In this document: piece after piece, positions 7,456 through 18,053 of the stretch
Position numbering within the stretch: position 1 is the stretch's first letter
How the letters are laid out: every line of letters starts with the position of its first letter
From: Anaerolineaceae bacterium
Lineage (GTDB): Bacteria > Chloroflexota > Anaerolineae > Anaerolineales > Anaerolineaceae
Direction: 5' to 3'
Length of the DNA: 64,000 nt
Assembly: GCA_016927865.1 (NCBI GenBank)
Contig: JAFGLU010000047.1
Span: 1 to 64,000 of the forward strand
The notes under the pieces: generated by a model
What the model was told of the DNA's origin: nothing
What the model saw: the letters and a program-made list of their open reading frames with translations, nothing else
Databases searched by the model: none
Made by a program: the position numbers and the translations under genes

Positions 7456-7540
7456 TGGCTAAGAATGCCGACCGTTAATCCACCCAAATGCGGTAAAATG
7501 GGTGAAGTTCCATTACCCAATCAACATATCAGGTTTTAAT

Positions 7541-8995
7541 ATGCCCCTCCTTACCCCCGGACGCCGATGGCAGCCAATCTATTACCCGTTCCGCAAAGAA
7601 AAACTCTCCCACAGCATTCTCAATACCCTGGAAATGCTCTACAAAGGTCCACTGTGGGGCTGCCGCCAATGTGGCAACTGCCTCCTCCAAGAGACAGCCT
7701 TCATTTGCCCCATGGAATGTCCCAAGGGCATTCGCAATGGTCCCTGCGGTGGAGCGACCGAAGAATATTGCTACATCGATAAAACACGCCCCTGTATCTG
7801 GCACAAAATCTACGAACGCGCCTTTAAGATGGGCCGCCAGGAAAGACTCCTCGAGGTGCTGCCACCCCTGGATTGGGAACTGGTCGGCTCCGAACAGATC
7901 GGCAAACTAGTTGCCCAGGTGAAGAAGAACGGCACTAGCAAAGTCATCCGCGGGCTGACCTCCTCTGACCCGGTCAAGCGCAAAGTAACCTGGGACGGCA
8001 TCTTCCGCCCGGTGCGCCAGCCTGATTGGTGGCAGGGAGACGCTGAATACCACGCGCCCGCCTACACCGAGCCCATCTCTGGGCTAGAAGCAGCGCTTAA
8101 GACCGGTCAGTTCGTCGTCACCGCCGAAATCCAGCCACCGCAAACCAGCGCCACCACCAAACTCAAGAAGAACATCGAGATGATCAAGCCCTATGTAACG
8201 GCGGTTAACTTCACCGACGGCGCCTCCGCCACCCCGCGCATGGCCGCGGTGGCCTGCTCAACCCTGGCTGCCCAACAAGGCGCCGAACCCGTCCTGCAAA
8301 TCGCCGCTCGCGACACCACCCGCGTCGCCCTACAATCGGATGCCCTTGGAGCCAACCCCCTGGGGATCCAAAACGTGCTGTGCCTTTCCGGTGATAGCAA
8401 CAAGCTGGCCCCTGCCCCGCAGGGTCGTCTGGATATCCTCGACCTGGACTCTATCCAAATGCTGTGGATCTTGCGCCGCATGCGCGACGAAGGCCGCTAC
8501 CTGGACGGACGTGAGATCAAGTTCCCGCCCAAGCTGTTCCTGGGCGCTGCGGCCTCCCCCTTTGCCTCGCGCCCCGAATTCCAGGCTCTGCGCGAACACA
8601 AGAAAGTCAATGCCGGAGCGCAGTTCTTCCAAACGAACCTGGTCTTTGACCCCGACCGCCTGGATATCTGGCTCAATGAGCTGGCCAAACGCAACATCCT
8701 CGACAAGGTTTACATCCTCATCGGCCTTCTACCGCTCAAGACTTTCAAAGTCACAAAATACATGCAAGCAGAAATCCCCGGCGTGTTCATTCCCGATTCA
8801 ATCATGAAGCGCATGGAAGCCGCGGATGCAGCCGGGAATGCCGCCGAAGAAGGTGTGCAAATCACACTCGAACTCATTGAGAAAATCCGCACCAAGCAAG
8901 GCGTGCATGGCATCCACCTCATGTCGGTGGGCTGGGAAGAGATCATCCCTCGCATCGTCACCGAGGCCGGTCTACTCATCACAGGAGCCCCATGA
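7541..8995 (+). CDS. Methylenetetrahydrofolate reductase with N-terminal MetV-like Cys-rich domain
   Basis: The first 110 or so residues form the domain called MTHFR C-terminal, or MetV-like: CRQCGNCLLQ, CPMECPKG, GPCGG and CYIDKTRPC supply eight or more Cys for metal or Fe-S binding. The rest, from about GLEAALKTGQFVVTAEIQPP, is a MetF-type TIM barrel that reduces methylene-H4folate to methyl-H4folate. In acetogens MetV and MetF are separate subunits. Here they are one chain with the Cys-rich part first. The frame is open from a GTG at 7502. I prefer the ATG at 7541 because a TAAAAT box lies at 7494-7499. The stop overlaps the next start by ATGA. Confidence 0.8.
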   Translation: MPLLTPGRRWQPIYYPFRKEKLSHSILNTLEMLYKGPLWGCRQCGNCLLQETAFICPMECPKGIRNGPCGGATEEYCYIDKTRPCIWHKIYERAFKMGRQERLLEVLPPLDWELVGSEQIGKLVAQVKKNGTSKVIRGLTSSDPVKRKVTWDGIFRPVRQPDWWQGDAEYHAPAYTEPISGLEAALKTGQFVVTAEIQPPQTSATTKLKKNIEMIKPYVTAVNFTDGASATPRMAAVACSTLAAQQGAEPVLQIAARDTTRVALQSDALGANPLGIQNVLCLSGDSNKLAPAPQGRLDILDLDSIQMLWILRRMRDEGRYLDGREIKFPPKLFLGAAASPFASRPEFQALREHKKVNAGAQFFQTNLVFDPDRLDIWLNELAKRNILDKVYILIGLLPLKTFKVTKYMQAEIPGVFIPDSIMKRMEAADAAGNAAEEGVQITLELIEKIRTKQGVHGIHLMSVGWEEIIPRIVTEAGLLITGAP

Positions 8996-9999
8996 AACCC
9001 TTCCACAACCTCACCAACCCCGGAAAACTGCGCCGCTTGCGGCAACTGGCCGATTTCGCCATTAGTCATTACGACCTCGACCAACCTGAACTCATCTATC
9101 ACTGTTTCGAAACAAACCTGCTCTACCGAGTAACCACAAAATCTGGCGAGCGCTTCATCTTGCGCCTGGCCTCTCCCGGCTGGCGCACGCTGCAAGACCT
9201 GCAAGCCGAAGCACTTTGGCTGCGCAGCATTGATGAAGATACCGACATCCCTGCACCGAAAATCATTCCAGCCCGCTCCGGTGAGTTTGTACTACCCACC
9301 AGCATTCCATCTGTGCCTGATCCTTGGAACGTCAGTTTGATGACCTGGGTACCGGGGCGGCTCCTGGGCGGCTACCTGAACGAGCCCAACCTCGAAAAGA
9401 TGGGCGCGTTGTTCTCCCAACTCCACCAGCACAGCGGAGCCTGGACTCCGCCCGCCGGCTTCTCCACGCGCCGCTTCGAACACTGGCTCTCGCGCGGCGA
9501 AGCCAACAGCATCCTCGGCAATGACCTCTCCCCTGAAGCAGCCGCGCTGCCTCCCGCCTCCCGCGACCTCCTGGAGCGCATGAGCAACCGCGTAGAAGCC
9601 GCCTATGCGGCTATCGACCGCGCCGACCTGCGCATCATCCACTGCGACCTATGGCACGACAACATCAAAATCCACCACGGCGTGCTCTATCCCTTCGACT
9701 TCGAAGACACCGTGTGGGGTTTCCGCGCCCATGATATTGCAATGGCCATGCTCGACCTGCTCGAAACCGCCGGCGAAGAGCGCTACCCCGCCCTGCTGGC
9801 GGCTTTTCGGCGCGGATATACTGCCCTAATGGATTGGCCCATCGACCCCATCGAGCCGCTGCAAATCGGTCGTATGTTGTGGATGATCAACTGGGTGGCC
9901 CGCAACCAGTCGCAATGGTTGGGCAACATGGTCGAGCGGCATGTACCAGTGTTTGAGCATTTCGAGAAAACCGGCCAGATTATTCTTCCAAAGGAATAA
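8992..9999 (+). CDS. APH-fold phosphotransferase (kinase of unknown substrate)
   Basis: The 335-aa protein belongs to the aminoglycoside phosphotransferase / choline kinase / homoserine kinase fold. The ATP lid region reads RFILRLASP. The catalytic loop is IHCDLWHDN at about residues 216-224, and the magnesium site is DFEDT at about 236-240. These match the Brenner motif and the metal Asp. Family members phosphorylate small hydroxyl compounds or Ser/Thr residues. The ATGA overlap with the methylenetetrahydrofolate reductase suggests a one-carbon or methionine-related substrate, which is inference only. Antibiotic resistance is not implied by the fold. Confidence 0.75.
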   Translation: MKPFHNLTNPGKLRRLRQLADFAISHYDLDQPELIYHCFETNLLYRVTTKSGERFILRLASPGWRTLQDLQAEALWLRSIDEDTDIPAPKIIPARSGEFVLPTSIPSVPDPWNVSLMTWVPGRLLGGYLNEPNLEKMGALFSQLHQHSGAWTPPAGFSTRRFEHWLSRGEANSILGNDLSPEAAALPPASRDLLERMSNRVEAAYAAIDRADLRIIHCDLWHDNIKIHHGVLYPFDFEDTVWGFRAHDIAMAMLDLLETAGEERYPALLAAFRRGYTALMDWPIDPIEPLQIGRMLWMINWVARNQSQWLGNMVERHVPVFEHFEKTGQIILPKE

Positions 10000-10157: not shown

Positions 10158-10475
10158 ATGTTACACGAACCCGCAACACCCGCTGGGAAAGATCCCGCCG
10201 GGCCATATAAGATGCGTTTGGGCATCCGTATGTTCATTTTTTATGCCCTTTTCTATGCCAGTTTTGTGGCAATTAACCTCCTCAGCCCTGCGACGATGGC
10301 GAAGATTGTCTTTGCCGGACTCAATTTGGCCACAGTTTTCGGATTTAGCCTGATTCTTGTCGCTCTGATCGAGGCCCTGGTCTATGATTGGCTTTGCCGC
10401 AAAAAAGAAACCGAACTCGAACATACAGAACATAGGCATAAAAAATCCACTACACAAGGCAAAGGGAAGCGCTAA
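10158..10475 (+). CDS. DUF485 family membrane protein
   Basis: This small protein (105 aa) has two membrane helices (FIFYALFYASFVAINLL and AGLNLATVFGFSLILVALIEALVYDWLC) and a charged, His-rich C-terminus. DUF485 proteins (YjcH type) are nearly always encoded next to ActP-family acetate symporters, as here with only 2 bp to the next gene. Their exact role is not established; they are presumed transporter partners. The start at ATG 10158 has TAAGGAG just upstream. A TTG two codons earlier would be in frame but is less likely. Confidence 0.85.
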   Translation: MLHEPATPAGKDPAGPYKMRLGIRMFIFYALFYASFVAINLLSPATMAKIVFAGLNLATVFGFSLILVALIEALVYDWLCRKKETELEHTEHRHKKSTTQGKGKR

Positions 10476-10477
10476 TC

Positions 10478-12373
10478 ATGGCCATCATCATCTTCCTCAT
10501 TTTCGTTGTATTTGTGATTGGCTTGTCCTTGTATTTGGGCAATAAAGCCAAGACATCTAGTGGATATTACGCAGCTGGTGGAAAAATCCATTGGGGTGTG
10601 AACGGGATCGCTTTTGCCGGCGATTATCTCTCGGCTGCTTCATTCCTTGGCATCTGCGGCATGATCGCCACAGTTGGCTATGATGGTTTCCTGTACTCGA
10701 TTGGCTATCTGGCCGGATGGATTGTCGCGTTGTTTGTCGTAGCAGAACCGCTAAAACGCCTTGGAAAATATACCTTCACGGATGCCGTAGACGCTAACTA
10801 TAACTCCCGCGGCATTAAGCTGGCTGCTGCGATTAGCACACTTGTGGTCTCCATATGCTACCTCATCCCTCAAATGGTGGGCGCAGGTGTATTGGTAGAA
10901 CCGCTGTTAGGGATTCCCCATTCCTGGGGCGTCATTATGGTTGGCGCAATCGTAATCACAATCGTTGCGACAGCCGGCATGGCCTCCACCACCTATGTCC
11001 AATTCTTAAAGGGGTCGTTGTTAATCATTTTTTCAACCGTTTTAGTCGGCGCTGTTGTGATCCGTGGGTTATCAACCCAACCCGACCAGAGTGGAAAGGT
11101 CCCTTACTACGAATATACCCAACATGCAGCCACAAAAACAGGTGATCAATATACAGTCGATGAGGCCGGTTGGAATGTTGTAGAACAAAAAGAAATCAAA
11201 GGCGGGCTGGTTTTCCTCAAACTGGACCATGAAGACAAAGAAACCTGGTGGTATGCTTCTGAGAGCGATGGAGTGACCTTGCTCAAAGAGACGCAATCTG
11301 TGGTTGCCAAATCGGACGGCAAGTGGATTAATGGTTCGCCTGCTTCCGCGACCAATCAACTGCGCCAGGTGGGGAACCTTGAAAAAATTGCGGGCGATGG
11401 TGGAGTTGAGACCGGCAGTCTCTCTGTCTTTGAATTCTTATCCCTGCTTACGGATAAAGATACTTCCGTCCGGACCTGGAAAACAGCGAATTTTGTTGAT
11501 GCCGCCGGGGAAAAAGTCACCGTCTACTATCCACAAATCGTATCGGGCGATCGAATCATGCGCCCTGGTTTGAAATTCAAAGTCGAAGGAACCCTGTTAG
11601 AGCGGCTCGATTTCCTATCACTAATGCTGGCGTTGTTCCTGGGCACTGCCGCCTTACCCCACATCCTTATCCGCTATTACACAGTACCCAGTCCGGCAAG
11701 CGCACGCAAATCTACGATTGTTGCCATTGCATCCATTGGCTTCTTCTACATCTTGACCCTGTTCATGGGCTTGGGAGCCATGGTCAATGGCGTCATTAAT
11801 CCAGCAGACAGCAACATGGCTGCCCCATTGCTGGCCCGCTCGTTCGGCGAACTGCTTTTTGCGATCATTTCCGCCATTGCTTTCGCCACCGTTTTAGGAA
11901 CAGTTAGCGGCTTAATTGTGGCTGCTTCCGGCGCAGTCGCGCATGACCTGATGGATCGCTATCTGAAGGTCAAGATGGACGATCGCCAGAAGGTAACCGC
12001 TGGAAAAATCTCGGCATTTGTCATCGGTGGGATAGCCATCTTACTCGGCATCCTTTTTAAGGGCATGAATGTCACCTTCCTCGTCGGTCTGGCATTCGCT
12101 GTAGCGGCCTCAGCGAATCTACCCGCAATAACCATGCTGTTATTCTGGAAGAAAACCACAGCCAGGGGCATTGCTGCCTCAATTGTCGTGGGTATCGTCG
12201 CGTCATTGGGTTTGATCGCATTTTCCCCAGACCTGTATACACTGTATGGATTGAACCCGCTGGATGCACCTATTCCATTTAGCAACCCAGGGATCATCTC
12301 TATTCCGTTGAGCTTCATCACCCTCGTTGTGGTCTCGCTGCTGACCCAAAAGGCTGAAATAGCCAAAGCATAA
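10478..12373 (+). CDS. actP: Cation/acetate symporter of the SSS family
   Basis: The 631-aa protein is a sodium:solute symporter. Early signatures are SSGYYAAGGKIHWGVNGIAFAGDYLSAAS split over TM1-2, then YLIPQMVGAGVLVEPLLGI and a typical ALPHILIRYYTVPS before the later helices. This set is characteristic of ActP-type monocarboxylate carriers. A soluble insertion of about 170 residues (roughly 200-370) between the two halves makes it longer than the usual 550 residues. Insertions of this kind are common in ActP-like proteins outside the Proteobacteria. Upstream DUF485 and downstream PHP/Cache/DUF294 genes form one unit. Acetate is the likely substrate, but pyruvate or propionate cannot be excluded. 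Confidence 0.85.
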   Translation: MAIIIFLIFVVFVIGLSLYLGNKAKTSSGYYAAGGKIHWGVNGIAFAGDYLSAASFLGICGMIATVGYDGFLYSIGYLAGWIVALFVVAEPLKRLGKYTFTDAVDANYNSRGIKLAAAISTLVVSICYLIPQMVGAGVLVEPLLGIPHSWGVIMVGAIVITIVATAGMASTTYVQFLKGSLLIIFSTVLVGAVVIRGLSTQPDQSGKVPYYEYTQHAATKTGDQYTVDEAGWNVVEQKEIKGGLVFLKLDHEDKETWWYASESDGVTLLKETQSVVAKSDGKWINGSPASATNQLRQVGNLEKIAGDGGVETGSLSVFEFLSLLTDKDTSVRTWKTANFVDAAGEKVTVYYPQIVSGDRIMRPGLKFKVEGTLLERLDFLSLMLALFLGTAALPHILIRYYTVPSPASARKSTIVAIASIGFFYILTLFMGLGAMVNGVINPADSNMAAPLLARSFGELLFAIISAIAFATVLGTVSGLIVAASGAVAHDLMDRYLKVKMDDRQKVTAGKISAFVIGGIAILLGILFKGMNVTFLVGLAFAVAASANLPAITMLLFWKKTTARGIAASIVVGIVASLGLIAFSPDLYTLYGLNPLDAPIPFSNPGIISIPLSFITLVVVSLLTQKAEIAKA

Positions 12374-12375
12374 CG

Positions 12376-15300
12376 ATGGATGAAATCGTTCAGGTCAATT
12401 TCCACTGCCATTCCAACTTCAGTGATGGCGACCAGGCTCCTGAAGTTCTGGCAGGGAATCTGGCCTCAGCGGGTGTGCGTTATGCAGCTTTAACTGATCA
12501 CGATACAATAGATGGCTTGCCGCGTTTTCAGGATGCCCTCCGAAAACGCGGCATTGCCTTCTTGTCTGGGGTGGAATTGACCACCCAATTCAATGGCCGC
12601 GAAGCTCACATCCTGGGTTACGGCTTTGATCCAGACCACACCGGATTAGCATCCACGCTTCTTTCACTCCGGCAGGTCCGCGGACTTGAGGTGCACAGCA
12701 TCGCCGGGTCCATCCGCAAGGCCGGTAGCATTCGGCAGAATGAAACCAACCTTCCTCACTCAGTGAGCGCCGCCCCACACGGGTATTTGGAGATTGAGGA
12801 AGCCATCGCACTCATTCATCGCTCTGGCGGATATGCTTTTTGGGCACATCCACTCATATTTGAACCCGACCTGGAGAAGATCGACCGCCTGGTCGAGGAA
12901 CTGAAATCAAAAGGACTGGACGGCATAGAAGCGATCTATGCCCCATTTTCCGAGACAGAGCAAGCAGCCCTTCATTCATTAGCCCAGAAACATCATCTGC
13001 TCGTATGTGCCGGCACTGATTTTCACAGCGGCAATGGTATAGGCGGTCAATCCTATAGCATTGGAATGCCTCGCGAAGACTGGAACAGCTTCCGCGAAGC
13101 GGTATTTTCAAGCCACTCAGTTTCCAAAACACATGTAGCGGTTGGCAGAACCACCTCTACTGCTCATGTTTCCCATGGGAATCCTGGCGGCCAATCGCAC
13201 CATTTTCGCCGGCGTTCCTTTGTGCTGCGGATTTTTCTCCCTACTTTTCTAGCAATTGCACTATTCTTAGCCGCAATCTGGGGCTTTTTCATGCCCTCGA
13301 TCGAACAAACGCTGCTCGATCGCAAACGGGAGATGATTCGGGAATTAACCAATTCCGCCTGGAGCATTCTTGCTTCGTACCAACTCGACGAACAAAACGG
13401 CCTGCTTTCGCGCGAGCAAGCACAAGCGATGGCAATTACTCGCATTGAAGCCTTGCGTTATGGAGATGAAGGTAAAGATTATTTTTGGATTCAAGATATG
13501 CAGCCGCGCATGATTATGCACCCTTATCGCGCCGATTTGAATGGGCAGGATCTGCGTAATTTTACAGATCCACGCGGCGTGCCCATATTCGTGGAGTTCG
13601 CTTCCCTGGTACAACGCTCAGGCGAAGGGTATATTGATTACGTCTGGCAGTGGAAAGACGATCCCCAACGCCTCGAGCCAAAAGAATCATTTGTGAAAGG
13701 GTTCTCGCCCTGGGGGTGGGTCATTGGGACAGGTATCTATATAGATGACGTCAATCAGGAAATCGCACGGATTGAGCAAAGGCTGATCAATACATCGCTC
13801 GCAATTTCTGGTGCGATTGTGTTACTCCTCTTTTTCGTCCTTCAACAAAGCTTGCGCATTGAACAAAAGCGACAGGAAGTGGTTGATAACCTGCGCGAAT
13901 CGACAGAGCGCTACCACACTCTCGTCGAAGCAACCACCGAAGGCACGTTACTGGTTCTGGATGATCGTTGCCGCTATGCCAACCCCATTTTTCTCAGTAT
14001 GCTCGGCTACACCGCCCGCCAATTAGAGTTCCTCGAACTAGTCGACATATTACCCCGCCATGCTCATAACGAGGCCATCTGGGAACGCCTGCAAAGCAGC
14101 AATGGCGAACTATCCGTGACAGGGGGAGCGCTCGAGGGCAGCTTATTGCGCGCAGACGGAATCCGGTTGGAATGTATTTTAAACATTAACCCAATACAAT
14201 TTGCCGAACAACATGGTTTTATCTTATTAGCCAGAGACATAGCCAGGCAGCCTTCTTCGATTAGCCACGAAGGACTGGCCCTCGCAGCGCAGTCCTCTCC
14301 GTTTGGCATTTTCCGCGCCAAGGCCGCGCGACAGGGGATTTTCCTGGAGATCAACCCAATTGGCTTATCTTTTCTTCCCCAGTCCTCGGTCGCCGAATCC
14401 GCCCAACCGGCCCTGGCCGATTTCTTTACCGACCCCACGGAATATGACCAAGTTCTTCAAACCCTGCTCACGCAGGGAGAGATCAAGGACCACATCCTTC
14501 ATATTGAAACCAGCAATGCTGAGGCCCGTTTCATCTCGCTATCGGCCATTCTCGTCCGCGACGAACAGAACCACCCCGACTACATCAGCGGATTGCTAGA
14601 GGATGTTACCGCGGCCCGTAAGCATGAGATCGGGAGGGAAGCGCTCATCGAGAAATTGCAGTCCTCCCTTTTGTTCCTGCATGAGCCAATTGCAAACTTA
14701 GGCCGCGAAATAGTTGTCTGTAAAATGGACACCAGCATCGAACAACTTTCCCGGATCATGACATCGCATCAGGTGACTGCCGCGCTCGTTTCTAATGAAA
14801 CTTCGACCATCATTGGGATTGTCACCGACCACGATCTGCGCGCCCGCGTGTTGGCCGAAAGCGTGAAATTGAACGCCCCAATCCACACCATTATGAGCGC
14901 GCCGCTGACAAAAATTTCGGAACATGCGCTCATCTATGAGGCCCTGTTACGCATGGAAGAAAAAGGCGTGCGCCATCTGGCTGTGGAAGACCAGAATGGA
15001 CAGATTGTCAGCGTCATTGATAGTAAATCCCTAATCCAATTCCAACGCTACGGGCCAATTGTGCTTTCCCGTGAAATTGGCCGGGCGAAAACACCGGATG
15101 AAGTCGCCCAGTTCTGTGAGCGCAACGTTCCGCTGGTGAAATCACTCCTCGATAGCAGCGCTCGTCCGCGCCACGTCACCAACATGCTCGCATCAATCTG
15201 CGATGCGGCCACAGAGAGGCTGATCCACCTTGCGATAGACGATCTCGGCCCCCCGCATGTCCCATTTGCATTCATCGCTATGGGCAGCCAGGGACGCCAG

Positions 15301-16092
15301 GAACAGACCCTGTTGACCGACCAGGATAACGGAATAATTTTTGCCTCCCCCGCCGATACAGAGTTGGAAAGCGTGACGGATTACTTCCTGCGCCTGGGAA
15401 CGCGAGTATGTGACGGCTTAAATCGCGCCGGATTCGCATTCTGTCGCGGCAACGTGATGGCCAGCAATCCCCACTGGTGCCGCTCTCTACCCAGTTGGAT
15501 TGCCGGGTTTAACGAATGGGTCAATAAGACAGAACCACAAGAATTAATGGACCTGAGTATTTTCTTTGATTTCCGCACAGTTTACGGGGAAACGGAATTA
15601 ACACATGAATTACGTCGCCACATTCACTCTGTTTTGCATGATCAACCCGCTTTCTTCCACCTTTTTGCCCAAAACGCCCTCACTTTCAAGCCGCCTTTCC
15701 GCTTGCTCGGAAATATCTACTTTAGCGGCGGCGCAGAGCATAGCGGAGAAATCAACCTCAAAGATGCCATGATGCCAATGGTGAGCTTTGCGCGTCTGTA
15801 TTCGCTGCAACATCAGATCAACCAAACGCACACCCTGGAACGAATTGAAGCACTTACAGAAAGAAACCTGATCCTTTCTTCTAGCCGGGACGAAATCACC
15901 GCCTCCTATGATTTCTTAATGCAACTCAGGCTTCAAAACCAAATTGCCGCCATCCAGGCTGGACGACCGCCCGGCAACACGATCCATCCCAGCAAGTTGG
16001 GTTACATACAACAGGAACTGCTAAAACAAGCATTCGCCCAAATTGCAGCAGTACAAAAGAAAGTTAGCTATGATTTTCTGGGTGGAACCTAA
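12376..16092 (+). CDS. PHP-Cache-PAS-PAS-CBS-DUF294 multidomain sensor protein
   Basis: This 1238-aa protein combines modules rarely seen together. Residues 1-245 form a PHP phosphoesterase domain with an intact metal set: HCH at 10-12, D17, TDHD with H42, GVE with E67, H78, WAHP with H158, GTDFH with D215 and H217. Helix 283-304 leads to a periplasm-side Cache region (about 305-470; DYFWIQD, MHPY, GWVIGTGIYIDDV) of the sCache_2 type, whose known ligands are short carboxylates. A second helix (474-491) returns to the cytoplasm. Two PAS-like regions (about 510-620 and 655-770) and a CBS pair (about 800-925) follow. The DUF294 nucleotidyltransferase has GSQGRQE near 970 and TDQD near 981, and the DUF294 C-terminal domain ends the chain. 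The gene starts 2 bp after actP. A role in sensing acetate and controlling uptake is inferred. Confidence 0.85.
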   Translation: MDEIVQVNFHCHSNFSDGDQAPEVLAGNLASAGVRYAALTDHDTIDGLPRFQDALRKRGIAFLSGVELTTQFNGREAHILGYGFDPDHTGLASTLLSLRQVRGLEVHSIAGSIRKAGSIRQNETNLPHSVSAAPHGYLEIEEAIALIHRSGGYAFWAHPLIFEPDLEKIDRLVEELKSKGLDGIEAIYAPFSETEQAALHSLAQKHHLLVCAGTDFHSGNGIGGQSYSIGMPREDWNSFREAVFSSHSVSKTHVAVGRTTSTAHVSHGNPGGQSHHFRRRSFVLRIFLPTFLAIALFLAAIWGFFMPSIEQTLLDRKREMIRELTNSAWSILASYQLDEQNGLLSREQAQAMAITRIEALRYGDEGKDYFWIQDMQPRMIMHPYRADLNGQDLRNFTDPRGVPIFVEFASLVQRSGEGYIDYVWQWKDDPQRLEPKESFVKGFSPWGWVIGTGIYIDDVNQEIARIEQRLINTSLAISGAIVLLLFFVLQQSLRIEQKRQEVVDNLRESTERYHTLVEATTEGTLLVLDDRCRYANPIFLSMLGYTARQLEFLELVDILPRHAHNEAIWERLQSSNGELSVTGGALEGSLLRADGIRLECILNINPIQFAEQHGFILLARDIARQPSSISHEGLALAAQSSPFGIFRAKAARQGIFLEINPIGLSFLPQSSVAESAQPALADFFTDPTEYDQVLQTLLTQGEIKDHILHIETSNAEARFISLSAILVRDEQNHPDYISGLLEDVTAARKHEIGREALIEKLQSSLLFLHEPIANLGREIVVCKMDTSIEQLSRIMTSHQVTAALVSNETSTIIGIVTDHDLRARVLAESVKLNAPIHTIMSAPLTKISEHALIYEALLRMEEKGVRHLAVEDQNGQIVSVIDSKSLIQFQRYGPIVLSREIGRAKTPDEVAQFCERNVPLVKSLLDSSARPRHVTNMLASICDAATERLIHLAIDDLGPPHVPFAFIAMGSQGRQEQTLLTDQDNGIIFASPADTELESVTDYFLRLGTRVCDGLNRAGFAFCRGNVMASNPHWCRSLPSWIAGFNEWVNKTEPQELMDLSIFFDFRTVYGETELTHELRRHIHSVLHDQPAFFHLFAQNALTFKPPFRLLGNIYFSGGAEHSGEINLKDAMMPMVSFARLYSLQHQINQTHTLERIEALTERNLILSSSRDEITASYDFLMQLRLQNQIAAIQAGRPPGNTIHPSKLGYIQQELLKQAFAQIAAVQKKVSYDFLGGT

Positions 16093-16409: not shown

Positions 16410-18053
16410 ATGATTAAAATGTCGGCAGCACACCGGTTTTTATCTATCTTCGTGTTATTGATCACCCTGACCGGCTGCGCCCCACGCGCCCAGAGCATGC
16501 CACTATACAGTTCGGGAACGGAAGGAACCAACTCATCGGAAGAAACAACTCGCGCCTCAAATTGGAACGAGGCCACCCACGGCAATGCCTCCGAACCTGA
16601 TTATGCCACTGTTTTTCCCCAGGATTCTGTTAACCGCATTGATATCACCCTGACAGAGGAAGCCTGGACGGCCCTACAAACCGAGATGGAAGAGCAATTC
16701 GGCGAATTCGGCACAGGCAACCGCCAGGGGGACTTCAACAACCGCCAACCCGGGCAGAACCCGCCCGAAGGCTGGGAACCCCCGACAGGCCAACAGCCGC
16801 CGACCGGGGACCAGCAGCCCCAAGAGGGGAATCCGCGCGGGCAGATGCCCGAAGGCCAGGCCACTCGTCAGGCCCCTGGGAACTTTCCTCAGGGTGGGAT
16901 GCCAGGAGGCGGCATGGGCCGTATGGATCTAGGCGAAACCACCTACGTAGAAAGCACAATCGCCTTTAACAGTGAGACCTGGGAAAACGTAGGCTTCCGC
17001 TACAGCGGCAATTCCACACTACGAACATCTTGGAGCAACGGCACACACAAAATCTCATTCCGACTCGACTTCGATGAATTCGAGGGTTCATACCCTTCCA
17101 TCGAAGACCAGCGTTTCTACGGTTTCAAGCAGCTCTCGTTCAAAAGCAACGCCATGGACGACTCTTACCTGCGCGAGAAAGTTGCCGCAGATGTGTTCCG
17201 TGATGCAGGCGTGGTATCTTCTCAGACCGCTTTTTATGAGGTGTATATTGACTACGGCGAAGGCCCGCAGTATTTCGGCCTCTACACCGCTGTAGAAATA
17301 GTCGACGATACCGTCATCGAAACCCAATTTGAGGACGACTCTGGTAACGTTTATAAACCCGAAGGCACGGGCGCTGCTTTCGCCGAAGGCACCTTTAACG
17401 AAGAGTCCTTCGAGAAGCAAACTAACGAGGATGAAGCCGACTGGAGCGACATCCAGGCTGTCTTTGCCGCCCTCCACACTGTCGAGCGAACCTCCGACCC
17501 CGAGGCCTGGCGCGCCGGCCTGGAGTCCGTCTTTGACGTAGACGCCTTCATCCGCTGGTTAGCCGTGGATACCATCATACAAAATTGGGACACCTACGGC
17601 GCTATGGCCCACAACTACTACCTGTACACCGATCCTGCCGACGGCCTGGTCACCTGGATCCCCTGGGACAACAACATGTCCTTCAGCGCCGCCTCCGGAC
17701 CGGGCGGTGGCGATCGAGGCGGCGGGGGTGGGCGTATGGGAAACGTTCGCGAGCTGGACATGGAAACAATTAACGATCAGTGGCCGCTCATCCGCTACCT
17801 GATAGACGACCCAATTTACAATGCCAAATACCAGCAGTACCTCGAGGAAACGATAGAGGACACTTTTGAGCCAGAGAAAATGGCTGCCACCTACCAAAAA
17901 TACCACGACCTGATCGCCCCCTTCGTTGAAAAAGAGGAGCAGGGCTTCACCCAGATCAATTCCATGAAAGCGTTTGAGGCCAGTCTGGACGAACTGACCC
18001 TGCATGCCCAATCCCGCGCGGAGGCTGTAGAGGAGTACCTAGCTGGGCAATAG
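16410..18053 (+). CDS. CotH-type kinase family lipoprotein
   Basis: The 547-aa product starts with a lipoprotein signal (lipobox LTGC, Cys near residue 23), so it is anchored outside the cell. After a Ser/Thr-rich spacer come DSVNRIDITLTEEAWTAL, then a Gln/Pro/Gly-rich low-complexity insert (about 97-175). The CotH core follows: YRGN-like YSGNSTLR, KISFRLDF, KQLSFKSNAMDDSYLREKVAADVF, YFGLYTAVE, VYKPEG and WIPWDNNMSF. CotH proteins are atypical secreted kinases that phosphorylate protein Ser residues; the Asp of WDNN is in the metal-binding position. The insert is unusual and may be a flexible stalk. The gene appears to stand alone. Confidence 0.85.
   Translation: MIKMSAAHRFLSIFVLLITLTGCAPRAQSMPLYSSGTEGTNSSEETTRASNWNEATHGNASEPDYATVFPQDSVNRIDITLTEEAWTALQTEMEEQFGEFGTGNRQGDFNNRQPGQNPPEGWEPPTGQQPPTGDQQPQEGNPRGQMPEGQATRQAPGNFPQGGMPGGGMGRMDLGETTYVESTIAFNSETWENVGFRYSGNSTLRTSWSNGTHKISFRLDFDEFEGSYPSIEDQRFYGFKQLSFKSNAMDDSYLREKVAADVFRDAGVVSSQTAFYEVYIDYGEGPQYFGLYTAVEIVDDTVIETQFEDDSGNVYKPEGTGAAFAEGTFNEESFEKQTNEDEADWSDIQAVFAALHTVERTSDPEAWRAGLESVFDVDAFIRWLAVDTIIQNWDTYGAMAHNYYLYTDPADGLVTWIPWDNNMSFSAASGPGGGDRGGGGGRMGNVRELDMETINDQWPLIRYLIDDPIYNAKYQQYLEETIEDTFEPEKMAATYQKYHDLIAPFVEKEEQGFTQINSMKAFEASLDELTLHAQSRAEAVEEYLAGQ

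What the first reader, a model, noticed from the sequence alone, without database searches (positions are those of the whole stretch)
12376..16092. PHP-Cache-PAS-PAS-CBS-DUF294 fusion coupled to a DUF485/ActP acetate symporter
The sequence shows one 1238-aa frame with an intact PHP metal site at the N-terminus, two membrane helices around a Cache domain, PAS regions, a CBS pair and a DUF294 nucleotidyltransferase (GSQGRQE, TDQD). It begins 2 bp after actP. It is established that DUF485 accompanies ActP, and sCache_2-type domains are known to bind small carboxylates. I infer a membrane sensor that reads external acetate and internal nucleotides (CBS) and modifies a partner by nucleotidylation. 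The PHP domain might reverse or degrade the modification. A forward and reverse enzyme pair on one sensor chain would be unusual.
Basis: partly seen in the sequence, partly recalled or inferred. Interest (0 to 1): 0.75.

Follow-up and report, generated by a model that had tools for sequence, protein, structure and literature searches.

The report
Acetate-type sensor joining two opposing enzymes
One bacterial membrane protein beside an acetate-type uptake pump combines an outside pocket of the kind that binds acetate with an enzyme that probably attaches nucleotides and one that probably removes them, and relatives replace the remover with unrelated enzymes encoded next door, which suggests an undescribed way to control uptake of small organic acids.

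Summary
The reading frame is real. Window 12376-16092 encodes one 1238-aa protein: PHP, membrane helix, sCache_2, membrane helix, PAS, a weak second PAS, CBS pair, DUF294, DUF294_C. It starts 2 bp after an SSF symporter gene that follows a DUF485 gene. It is no assembly join: the PHP form occurs in 64 of 81 loci examined, in many phyla. All nine PHP metal ligands are kept in 61 of 62 assessable proteins, and all seven residues of the PscD acetate/propionate pocket in 75 of 76. Symporter and fusion occur in the same 5 of 61 genomes.

PHP-less relatives carry a calcineurin-type phosphoesterase gene directly upstream (16 of 29) or a DnaQ-type exonuclease gene (6 of 29); neither was detected in the 64 PHP loci. 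Stand-alone CBS-DUF294 genes also sit beside DnaQ (25 of 29 Chloroflexota loci). In Pseudomonas putida a seemingly corresponding exonuclease gene, but not its CBS-protein neighbour, is needed for normal growth on pyruvate, as is actP-I (PMC9927547).

Best reading: a carboxylate-gated write/erase regulator of monocarboxylate uptake, with NTase as off-switch and phosphoesterase as on-switch. Architecture is shown; substrate, reaction and direction are inferred.

The parts
10158..10475 (+). DUF485 small membrane protein; the mechanical ORF starts at TTG 10152, the likely start is ATG 10158 (MLHEPA...)
   Evidence: Pfam DUF485 28.9 bits, cut-off 28; the consensus of 53 aligned homologues keeps the MLHEPA start region
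10478..12373 (+). SSF-family sodium:solute symporter, ActP/MctC-like (monocarboxylate/acetate)
   Evidence: SSF 229.7 bits; best NCBIfam model MctC 430.8 bits, below its cut-off of 670
12376..16092 (+). PHP-TM-sCache_2-TM-PAS-(PAS)-CBS-DUF294 fusion, 1238 aa
12376..13140 (+). PHP phosphoesterase region (residues 1-255), metal ligands H10 H12 D17 H42 E67 H78 H158 D215 H217
   Evidence: Pfam PHP; PDB 2yb1, 7ug9, 9etk, 3e0f relatives; 9/9 ligands in 61 of 62
13222..13278 (+). transmembrane helix 1 (residues 283-301)
   Evidence: hydropathy 2.39
13318..13776 (+). sCache_2 extracytoplasmic sensor (residues 315-467), pocket Y369 W371 H382 F405 Y422 W424 K436
   Evidence: PDB 5g4y/5g4z (PscD), 4k08; residue mapping from PMC5062169
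13786..13842 (+). transmembrane helix 2 (residues 471-489)
   Evidence: hydropathy 2.31
13906..14241 (+). PAS domain (residues 511-622)
   Evidence: PAS_9, PAS, PAS_8 above cut-off
14416..14619 (+). possible second PAS (residues 681-748)
   Evidence: PAS_4 19.2 bits, below its cut-off of 23.1
14704..15033 (+). CBS pair (about residues 777-886)
   Evidence: Pfam CBS, two stretches; PDB CBS proteins matched around 764-890
15133..15540 (+). DUF294 nucleotidyltransferase (residues 920-1055); GSQGR...TDQD, D982 D984, with D1065 just beyond the match
   Evidence: 148.5 bits; D982 and D1065 68 of 68, D984 67 of 68
15649..16077 (+). DUF294_C substrate-binding domain (residues 1092-1234)
   Evidence: 133.9 bits

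Best explanation
A carboxylate-gated write/erase regulator of monocarboxylate uptake, working like GlnD but built from other parts. The Cache domain reads external C2/C3 carboxylate, PAS and CBS domains add internal signals, and the signal passes through two membrane helices to two cytoplasmic catalytic domains. DUF294 (GlnD/GlnE-type nucleotidyltransferase) transfers a nucleotide to a target needed for ActP-type uptake, most simply the co-encoded symporter or its DUF485 partner. The PHP phosphoesterase, or in relatives a calcineurin-type phosphoesterase or DnaQ-type exonuclease, removes it. I infer that the NTase is the off-switch and the phosphoesterase the on-switch. Shown: architecture, conserved active sites and pocket, gene linkage, exchange of the phosphoesterase. 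Inferred: substrate, nucleotide, direction, ligand.
For: 1) Both catalytic centres are kept: PHP 9/9 ligands in 61 of 62, NTase GS/R/E/D/D in 69 of 70, a third carboxylate D1065 in 68 of 68. 2) The only protein with a broken NTase motif, L063, also lost two PHP ligands while its Cache pocket is whole. 3) Partner exchange: calcineurin-type gene directly upstream in 9 of 17 PHP-less and 0 of 64 PHP loci (Fisher 9.3e-8, not corrected for kinship); DnaQ 4 of 17 and 0 of 64; the same with profiles of both families. In 12 further PHP-less loci from genome draws: 7 calcineurin-type, 2 DnaQ. 4) Stand-alone CBS-DUF294 has DnaQ next door in 25 of 29 Chloroflexota loci. 5) Symporter and fusion in the same 5 of 61 genomes. 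6) Pocket 7/7 with PscD, which binds glycolate, acetate, propionate and pyruvate (PMC5062169). 7) The DUF294 profile also matches, above its cut-off, proteins that Pfam names GlnD (with HD) and GlnE; a paper groups DUF294_C with GlnD/GlnE C-terminal domains. 8) P. putida: loss of the exonuclease pp_0353 or of actP-I slows growth on pyruvate, loss of the CBS protein pp_0354 does not (PMC9927547 section 8). This is what an eraser/writer pair acting on uptake predicts.
Against: No modified target is known, and no activity of a DUF294 protein turned up in the searches. The PHP's nearest named relatives are RNA or 3',5'-nucleotide enzymes and DnaQ is a nuclease, which suits an RNA or nucleotide substrate as well. 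The authors of PMC9927547 suggest mRNA decay. In P. putida neither gene mattered on acetate, and in P. fluorescens deletion of pflu5625 or actP had a negligible effect on acetate. Three of 29 PHP-less loci show none of the recognised partners (L085, which has an unrelated convergent phosphoesterase gene, L088, L202) and four have only a convergent TIM-barrel gene. The exchange may rest on few independent events. That pp_0354 is of this DUF294 family is my inference; the passages call it a CBS protein.
Confidence: 0.47

Rival explanations
1. RNA-end editing: DUF294 adds nucleotides to an RNA and the PHP, DnaQ-type or calcineurin-type enzyme trims them, so carboxylate sensing changes the fate of a transcript or tRNA.
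For: DnaQ-type partners match Pfam RNase_T; the PHP is near a 5'-3' exoribonuclease (7ug9) and 2yb1; NCBIfam's best PHP models are 3',5'-nucleoside bisphosphatase and RNase RNM; the authors of PMC9927547 propose mRNA decay; DUF294_C is grouped with HEPN-type domains.
Against: No RNA-binding domain was matched; the DUF294 profile detects GlnD/GlnE, protein modifiers; the PHP lacks about 35 residues between its two halves that 2yb1 and 7ug9 have; linkage is to a transporter.
Confidence: 0.2
2. Signal nucleotide: DUF294 makes a small nucleotide messenger and the phosphoesterase degrades it, like a cyclase/phosphodiesterase pair on a sensor.
For: Cache-PAS-CBS input with two catalytic outputs resembles cyclase/phosphodiesterase sensors (recalled); the best PHP model acts on small nucleotides by its name.
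Against: GlnD/GlnE-type NTases act on proteins (recalled); DUF294_C is a putative substrate-binding domain; beyond symporter and DUF485 no gene family recurred near the PHP loci in the neighbour clustering.
Confidence: 0.13
3. The PHP (or DnaQ or calcineurin-type) enzyme is not the reverse of the NTase but a separate output or a clean-up enzyme, for example for 3',5'-bisphosphonucleotides; the parts are linked only by a shared acetate signal.
For: PHP best NCBIfam model is 3',5'-nucleoside bisphosphatase (132 bits, cut-off 400); the window's genome has a separate similar PHP gene (G000:C63), so PHP chemistry is used elsewhere in the cell.
Against: Mutually exclusive exchange of three unrelated phosphoesterases beside the same NTase and joint decay in L063 point to one shared task.
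Confidence: 0.14
4. Assembly join or frameshift fused two neighbouring genes.
For: Draft genome (147 contigs).
Against: Same architecture in 64 of 81 loci across many phyla; 65-69% identity over the full length in three relatives.
Confidence: 0.01

Closest known systems
pp_0354/pp_0353 operon of Pseudomonas putida (CBS protein + RNase_T-family exonuclease) in the MxtR/ErdR (CrbS/R) acetate regulon
   Same: CBS-domain protein paired with a phosphodiester-cleaving enzyme; in P. aeruginosa PAO1 the homologues lie next to actP and yjcH (PMC9927547; that YjcH is a DUF485 protein is recalled). Pflu5625 of P. fluorescens, annotated with cAMP-binding, CBS and nucleotidyltransferase domains, is in the same kind of regulon with actP and a DUF485 gene (PMC5715377)
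   Different: Separate genes, a cAMP-type input and an RNase_T enzyme; here one membrane chain with its own Cache sensor and PHP. In Pseudomonas the carboxylate response comes through a two-component system
GlnD uridylyltransferase/uridylyl-removing enzyme (functions recalled; a GlnD with HD seen in L159)
   Same: NTase plus metal hydrolase plus sensor domains in one chain; the DUF294 profile detects it (33.1 bits, 30.6, cut-off 21)
   Different: GlnD uses HD and ACT domains, is soluble and modifies PII (recalled); here PHP, Cache, PAS and CBS, membrane-bound, target unknown
PscD / McpP / Adeh_3718 sCache_2 chemoreceptor domains
   Same: Seven of seven pocket residues
   Different: Output is enzymatic, not chemotaxis
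RNase RNM (YciV) / 3',5'-nucleoside bisphosphatase PHP enzymes (PDB 7ug9, 2yb1)
   Same: All nine metal ligands, best PHP relatives
   Different: Lacks an insert of about 35 residues, far below the equivalog cut-offs (132 of 400; 105.1 of 375), fused to a sensor
MctS sensor kinase and MctC transporter models of NCBIfam
   Same: Sensor (74.5 bits) and transporter (430.8 bits) both match monocarboxylate models
   Different: Both below their cut-offs (700, 670); no kinase domain here

Membership tests
DUF294 nucleotidyltransferase (PF03445/PF10335) | score over Pfam cut-off, with the NTase motif | tested here: met
   148.5 and 133.9 bits, cut-offs 21 and 22.5; motif conserved
sCache_2 carboxylate sensor | Pfam cut-off and the seven PscD pocket residues | tested here: met
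   131 bits, cut-off 25; 7/7. Y369, W371 and H382 lie in the peptides used to find the loci, so their conservation is partly selected; F405, Y422, W424 and K436 are not
sCache_2 carboxylate sensor | binds acetate, propionate or pyruvate | not testable with these tools
   needs purified domain
PHP phosphoesterase | Pfam cut-off and nine metal ligands | tested here: met
   40.6 bits, cut-off 26.4; nine ligands, assignment partly recalled and checked on alignment to 2yb1 and 7ug9
RNase RNM / 3',5'-nucleoside bisphosphatase | NCBIfam equivalog cut-off | tested here: not met
   105.1 of 375; 132 of 400
GlnD | NTase domain of the GlnD/GlnE kind | tested here: met
   by profile relation only: the DUF294 profile hits a Pfam-named GlnD and a Pfam-named GlnE over its cut-off
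GlnD | HD hydrolase and ACT domains | tested here: not met
   none among the Pfam matches; so not a GlnD, though it may work like one
GlnD | reversible nucleotidylation of a protein | not testable with these tools
   needs biochemistry
ActP cation/acetate symporter (upstream gene) | NCBIfam cut-off of an ActP model | tested here: not met
   PRK09395 381.6 of 750; TIGR02711 316.6 of 1099; SSF family itself met
pp_0354/pp_0353-type CBS-NTase + exonuclease operon | DnaQ/RNase_T partner gene | tested here: not met
   none detected in any of the 64 PHP loci, the window (2000-26000) included, by tblastn with four DnaQ queries and by a profile of 22 DnaQ sequences

The most novel reading that the evidence does not exclude
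A previously undescribed class of bacterial nutrient-uptake switch: a writer of nucleotide marks with an acetate-type sensor on the same chain, paired with an eraser that evolution has swapped among at least three unrelated metal enzymes (fused PHP, calcineurin-type, DnaQ-type; perhaps a fourth, an AP-endonuclease-type TIM barrel), acting on an SSF carboxylate transporter or its DUF485 partner.
Probability: 0.4. Interest if true: 0.86.

Novelty: new variant of a known kind. Interest (0 to 1): 0.7.

Why it matters
DUF294-type proteins recur beside acetate-type symporters, and a Pseudomonas protein of the same description belongs to the acetate regulon, yet no activity turned up for the family in the searches made here. 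The exchange of unrelated phosphoesterases at one locus is good comparative evidence that a phosphodiester bond is made and cut by this system, and it turns an unknown family into a testable hypothesis. The published P. putida mutants already provide half of the epistasis test. If true, it adds reversible nucleotidylation, known best from nitrogen control, to carbon uptake, with an external sensor on the same chain.

Tried and rejected
Chimera or frameshift: rejected. Calling the symporter ActP: not supported at equivalog level. A second PAS: below cut-off. Promoters and terminators around the locus: 6 and 11 found, shuffled means 7.1 and 7.1 (sd 2.2 and 2.6), nothing to claim. Solved structures for DUF294: none matched at E 0.001. 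Conserved tyrosines as modification sites: DUF485 keeps a tyrosine near its C-terminal end (ALiY...C), a candidate only. Literature: DUF294 with acetate, 5 papers, no title or abstract start on this architecture (listing only); DUF294 with PHP domain 0; DUF294 with symporter 1, on nitrogen control in Bacilli (listing only); PHP domain with nucleotidyltransferase and Cache domain 0; DUF294 with nucleotidyltransferase and CBS 1, read in passages; the RpuS/R paper was seen in listing only. These cover open-licence PMC papers only.

Limits of the counts. The 80 loci are the best of 367 and were found by Cache peptides, so they favour near relatives, and Cache conservation at three of seven positions is partly selected. 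Some rows are the same or nearly the same record: L029, L031 and L041 have the contig lengths of L003, L004 and L002; L025 and L042 come from one MAG; L092/L095 and L081/L084 share stretches at about 90% DNA identity; L187 equals L037, and L197 has the contig length of L093; L187 and L197 were left out of the 12 further loci. Motif tables cover 76 of 81 loci: L052, L071, L081, L084 and L088 were not picked by my ORF caller, but were included in the partner counts by tblastn. L035 has its PHP and the rest in two frames and counts as PHP-bearing by tblastn. The stand-alone loci are 29 of the 35 matches besides the window, and 12 of 13. The tree is a quick one of 82 rows; L096 and L182 were dropped as short, PHP rows and stand-alone rows were subsampled by me, and several rows have long branches or odd composition. 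Fisher values ignore kinship. Absence of DnaQ and of the calcineurin-type family in PHP loci holds for tblastn at E 1e-5 and profiles at E 1e-3 over the stretches held, some of them short; it does not exclude other phosphoesterase families.
Full report
WHAT IS THERE. Window 12376-16092 (+) holds one 1238-aa frame that starts 2 bp after the stop of a 631-aa SSF symporter gene (10478-12373), itself 2 bp after a DUF485 gene. Pfam supports PHP, sCache_2, one PAS, a CBS pair, DUF294 and DUF294_C above cut-off; a second PAS is below it. Hydropathy shows two helices, 283-301 and 471-489, bracketing the Cache domain. This puts PHP at the N-terminus and PAS-CBS-DUF294 at the C-terminus on the same, presumably cytoplasmic, side (topology inferred).

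IT IS A REAL, OLD ARCHITECTURE. Among the window's genome and 40 relatives, the full-length protein occurs in four, the three others with 65-69% identity to the window. A scan of one genome per species kept the best 80 of 367 loci. With the window, 64 of these 81 carry PHP upstream of the Cache domain and 17 do not. By record titles the PHP form reaches Chloroflexota, Armatimonadota, Verrucomicrobiota, Omnitrophota, Spirochaetota, Acidobacteriota, Gemmatimonadota and others; titles of MAGs can be wrong. In 61 of 62 proteins with the PHP region filled, all nine metal ligands are present; in 69 of 70 the checked NTase residues are present. D1065, a likely third carboxylate, is present in 68 of 68.

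THE SENSOR. The Cache domain is closest to PDB 5g4y/5g4z and 4k08. PMC5062169 (passages; sections 7 and 8) names 5G4Y/5G4Z as PscD and 4K08 as Adeh_3718. It gives seven propionate contacts in PscD: Tyr90, Trp92, His103, Phe126, Tyr143, Trp145, Lys156. It reports binding of glycolate, acetate, propionate and pyruvate, and acetate in the Adeh_3718 crystal. By alignment these are Y369, W371, H382, F405, Y422, W424 and K436 here, and all seven are kept in 75 of 76 homologues. Three of them lie in the peptides used for the scan, so only the other four are free of that bias. The prediction that a C2/C3 carboxylate is the ligand is therefore strong, but untested.

THE LINK TO THE TRANSPORTER. In 61 genomes (the window's own and 60 relatives), the symporter (E at most 1e-40) occurs in 5. 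DUF294 rings in 10, of which 5 are strong (E below 1e-40) and 5 have only weak matches of 21-27 bits; the window's own genome also has one such weak match, and that one is a GlnE. The 5 strong genomes are the same five as for the symporter (chance about 1.7e-7 if genomes were independent), and all five carry the fusion. An SSF gene lies within 6 kb in 46 of 55 PHP-form loci with at least 3.2 kb upstream, 41 of them directly upstream on the same strand, and in 17 of 17 PHP-less loci; DUF485 is there in 42 of the 55. Nine of the 55 show no symporter, mostly Armatimonadetes-type records. The symporter is best described as ActP/MctC-like.

THE MAIN NEW OBSERVATION: THE PHOSPHOESTERASE IS EXCHANGEABLE. 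PHP-less relatives have the same Cache-PAS-CBS-DUF294 chain. In 9 of 17 a gene for a calcineurin-type metallophosphoesterase of one family lies directly upstream on the same strand (L078, L086, L090, L092, L093, L095, L097, L098, L099; Pfam Metallophos in the four members scanned). None of the 64 PHP loci has it (Fisher 9.3e-8, uncorrected for kinship; also none with a family profile). In four others (L071, L080, L081, L084) a DnaQ-type exonuclease gene is next to it (Pfam RNase_T for L071 and L081). A second, stand-alone-type gene lies beside the exonuclease in L071 and L080 (CBS-DUF294 by blast) and in L081, where only DUF294_C is matched and not the NTase domain. None of the 64 PHP loci has the DnaQ-type gene. 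Twelve further PHP-less loci from genome draws gave calcineurin-type in 7 (L181-L186, L199), DnaQ in 2 (L200, L201, in the order stand-alone DUF294, DnaQ, Cache-DUF294, DUF485, symporter), a convergent TIM barrel in 2 (L196, L198) and none in 1 (L202). In all, of 29 PHP-less loci: 16 calcineurin-type, 6 DnaQ, 4 with only a convergent AP_endonuc_2-like TIM-barrel gene (L076, L077, L196, L198; Pfam for the first two), 3 others (L085 with an unrelated convergent Metallophos gene; L088; L202). Stand-alone CBS-DUF294 genes have DnaQ directly beside them in 25 of 29 loci of the window's phylum (29 of the 35 matches besides the window were given as loci) and in 6 of 12 loci from the phylum of G452 (four by tblastn; two, L204 and L205, by eye, and RNase_T by Pfam; the other six show none that I could see). 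So one NTase family is accompanied by three unrelated metal-dependent phosphoesterases, and no locus in this sample showed two of the three.

EVOLUTION. A quick tree of the CBS-DUF294 part (82 rows) separates the Cache type from the stand-alone type (100*). Well-supported branches force at least two changes for the calcineurin-type label (the Aminicenantes pair lies among PHP rows, with weak local support) and three for DnaQ; the fewest changes for PHP are five, but one is not excluded. The number of independent exchanges is thus small and uncertain. One Armatimonadetes protein, L063, has lost two PHP ligands and the second NTase aspartate together, with the pocket intact and no symporter within 6 kb of its Cache domain. 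It is a single case, but what coupled activities would give.

MECHANISM. DUF294's Pfam model also matches, above its cut-off, a protein that Pfam names GlnD (with an HD domain, L159) and one it names GlnE (L140, the window's own genome), and PMC3710099 (passages) groups DUF294_C with the C-terminal domains of GlnD/GlnE. GlnD joins an NTase to an HD hydrolase and sensor domains (functions recalled). Here PHP, the calcineurin-type enzyme or DnaQ would take the hydrolase's place. The fused PHP lacks about 35 residues between its two halves that 2yb1 and 7ug9 have, which may open the site to a larger substrate (inference). The best functional hint is published: in P. putida, ErdR binds the promoter of pp_0354 (CBS protein), which forms an operon with pp_0353 (RNase_T family); deletion of pp_0353 or actP-I, but not of pp_0354, impairs growth on pyruvate; in P. 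aeruginosa PAO1 the homologues lie next to actP and yjcH (PMC9927547, abstract and passages, section 8). In P. fluorescens, Pflu5625, annotated with cAMP-binding, CBS and nucleotidyltransferase domains, is in the CrbS/R regulon with actP and a DUF485 gene; its deletion, like that of actP, had a negligible effect on acetate (PMC5715377, passages). Loss of an eraser harming uptake while loss of the writer does not is what the model predicts with the NTase as off-switch. The authors themselves suggest mRNA decay, and the data allow it.

WHAT IS NOT SHOWN. No substrate, no nucleotide, no direction, no ligand. Whether CBS binds nucleotides here is unknown. PHP may act on RNA or on small nucleotides.

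VERDICT. It is a new variant of a known kind: GlnD-like in logic, close to the Pseudomonas CBS protein/exonuclease operon, but membrane-bound, self-sensing and with a different, swappable phosphoesterase.

Noticed in passing
L076 11902-12741 (-), L077 11865-12698 (-), L196 8169-8987, L198 3304-4080: A TIM-barrel gene (Pfam AP_endonuc_2 in L076 and L077; tblastn in L196 and L198) lies convergent to the PHP-less Cache-DUF294 gene in four loci that lack the calcineurin-type and DnaQ genes; possibly a fourth partner type.
   Followed up: partly
window 10478-12373: The symporter carries an insert of about 120 residues (around 225-345) between conserved membrane segments; at least 100 residues of it are present in 49 of 52 aligned symporters beside PHP forms and 9 of 20 beside PHP-less forms.
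   Followed up: partly
L063: Natural double decay: two PHP metal ligands and the second NTase aspartate lost, Cache pocket whole, no symporter within 6 kb of the Cache domain.
   Followed up: partly
L200, L201: Two DUF294 proteins (one stand-alone type, one Cache type) with a DnaQ gene between them in one run with DUF485 and the symporter.
   Followed up: partly
L081 6754-8376: Stand-alone-type companion gene matches DUF294_C but not the DUF294 NTase domain, so it may be a degenerate copy; the companions in L071 and L080 have long branches.
   Followed up: partly
L035 6721-10447: PHP part and the rest of the fusion lie in two different frames; a frameshift or assembly error. Described only.
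   Followed up: no
G000:C63:74213-74980: The window's genome has a second, stand-alone PHP gene (306-aa open frame) similar to the fused PHP.
   Followed up: no
L140 (G000:C5): GlnE in the window's genome whose 761-aa visible part also matches an ACT-like domain (ACT_ACR9_3rd, 35 bits) behind its NTase and GlnD_UR_UTase parts; an ACT domain on GlnE seems unusual (recalled).
   Followed up: no
L077 / G453: Record title says Ectothiorhodospiraceae, but the 'class of G453' sample shares genomes with the 'phylum of G452' sample (a Bacteroidetes title); the title or binning is probably wrong.
   Followed up: partly
window 7502-9999: Methylenetetrahydrofolate reductase with a DUF5981 domain (7502-8995) overlapping by 4 bp an APH-family phosphotransferase gene (8992-9999).
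   Followed up: no
window 16410-18053: CotH-family protein gene downstream of the fusion; its family was seen in three loci only (family 13), so probably not part of the system.
   Followed up: no
porin-like gene beside PHP-less loci (e.g. L076 5065-6285, L093 13950-15170): A conserved outer-membrane-like protein of about 410 residues (label by eye; no Pfam match in the one scanned, L076) lies in 12 of 23 PHP-less loci and in 1 of 65 PHP loci (the 23 and 65 include L181-L187).
   Followed up: partly
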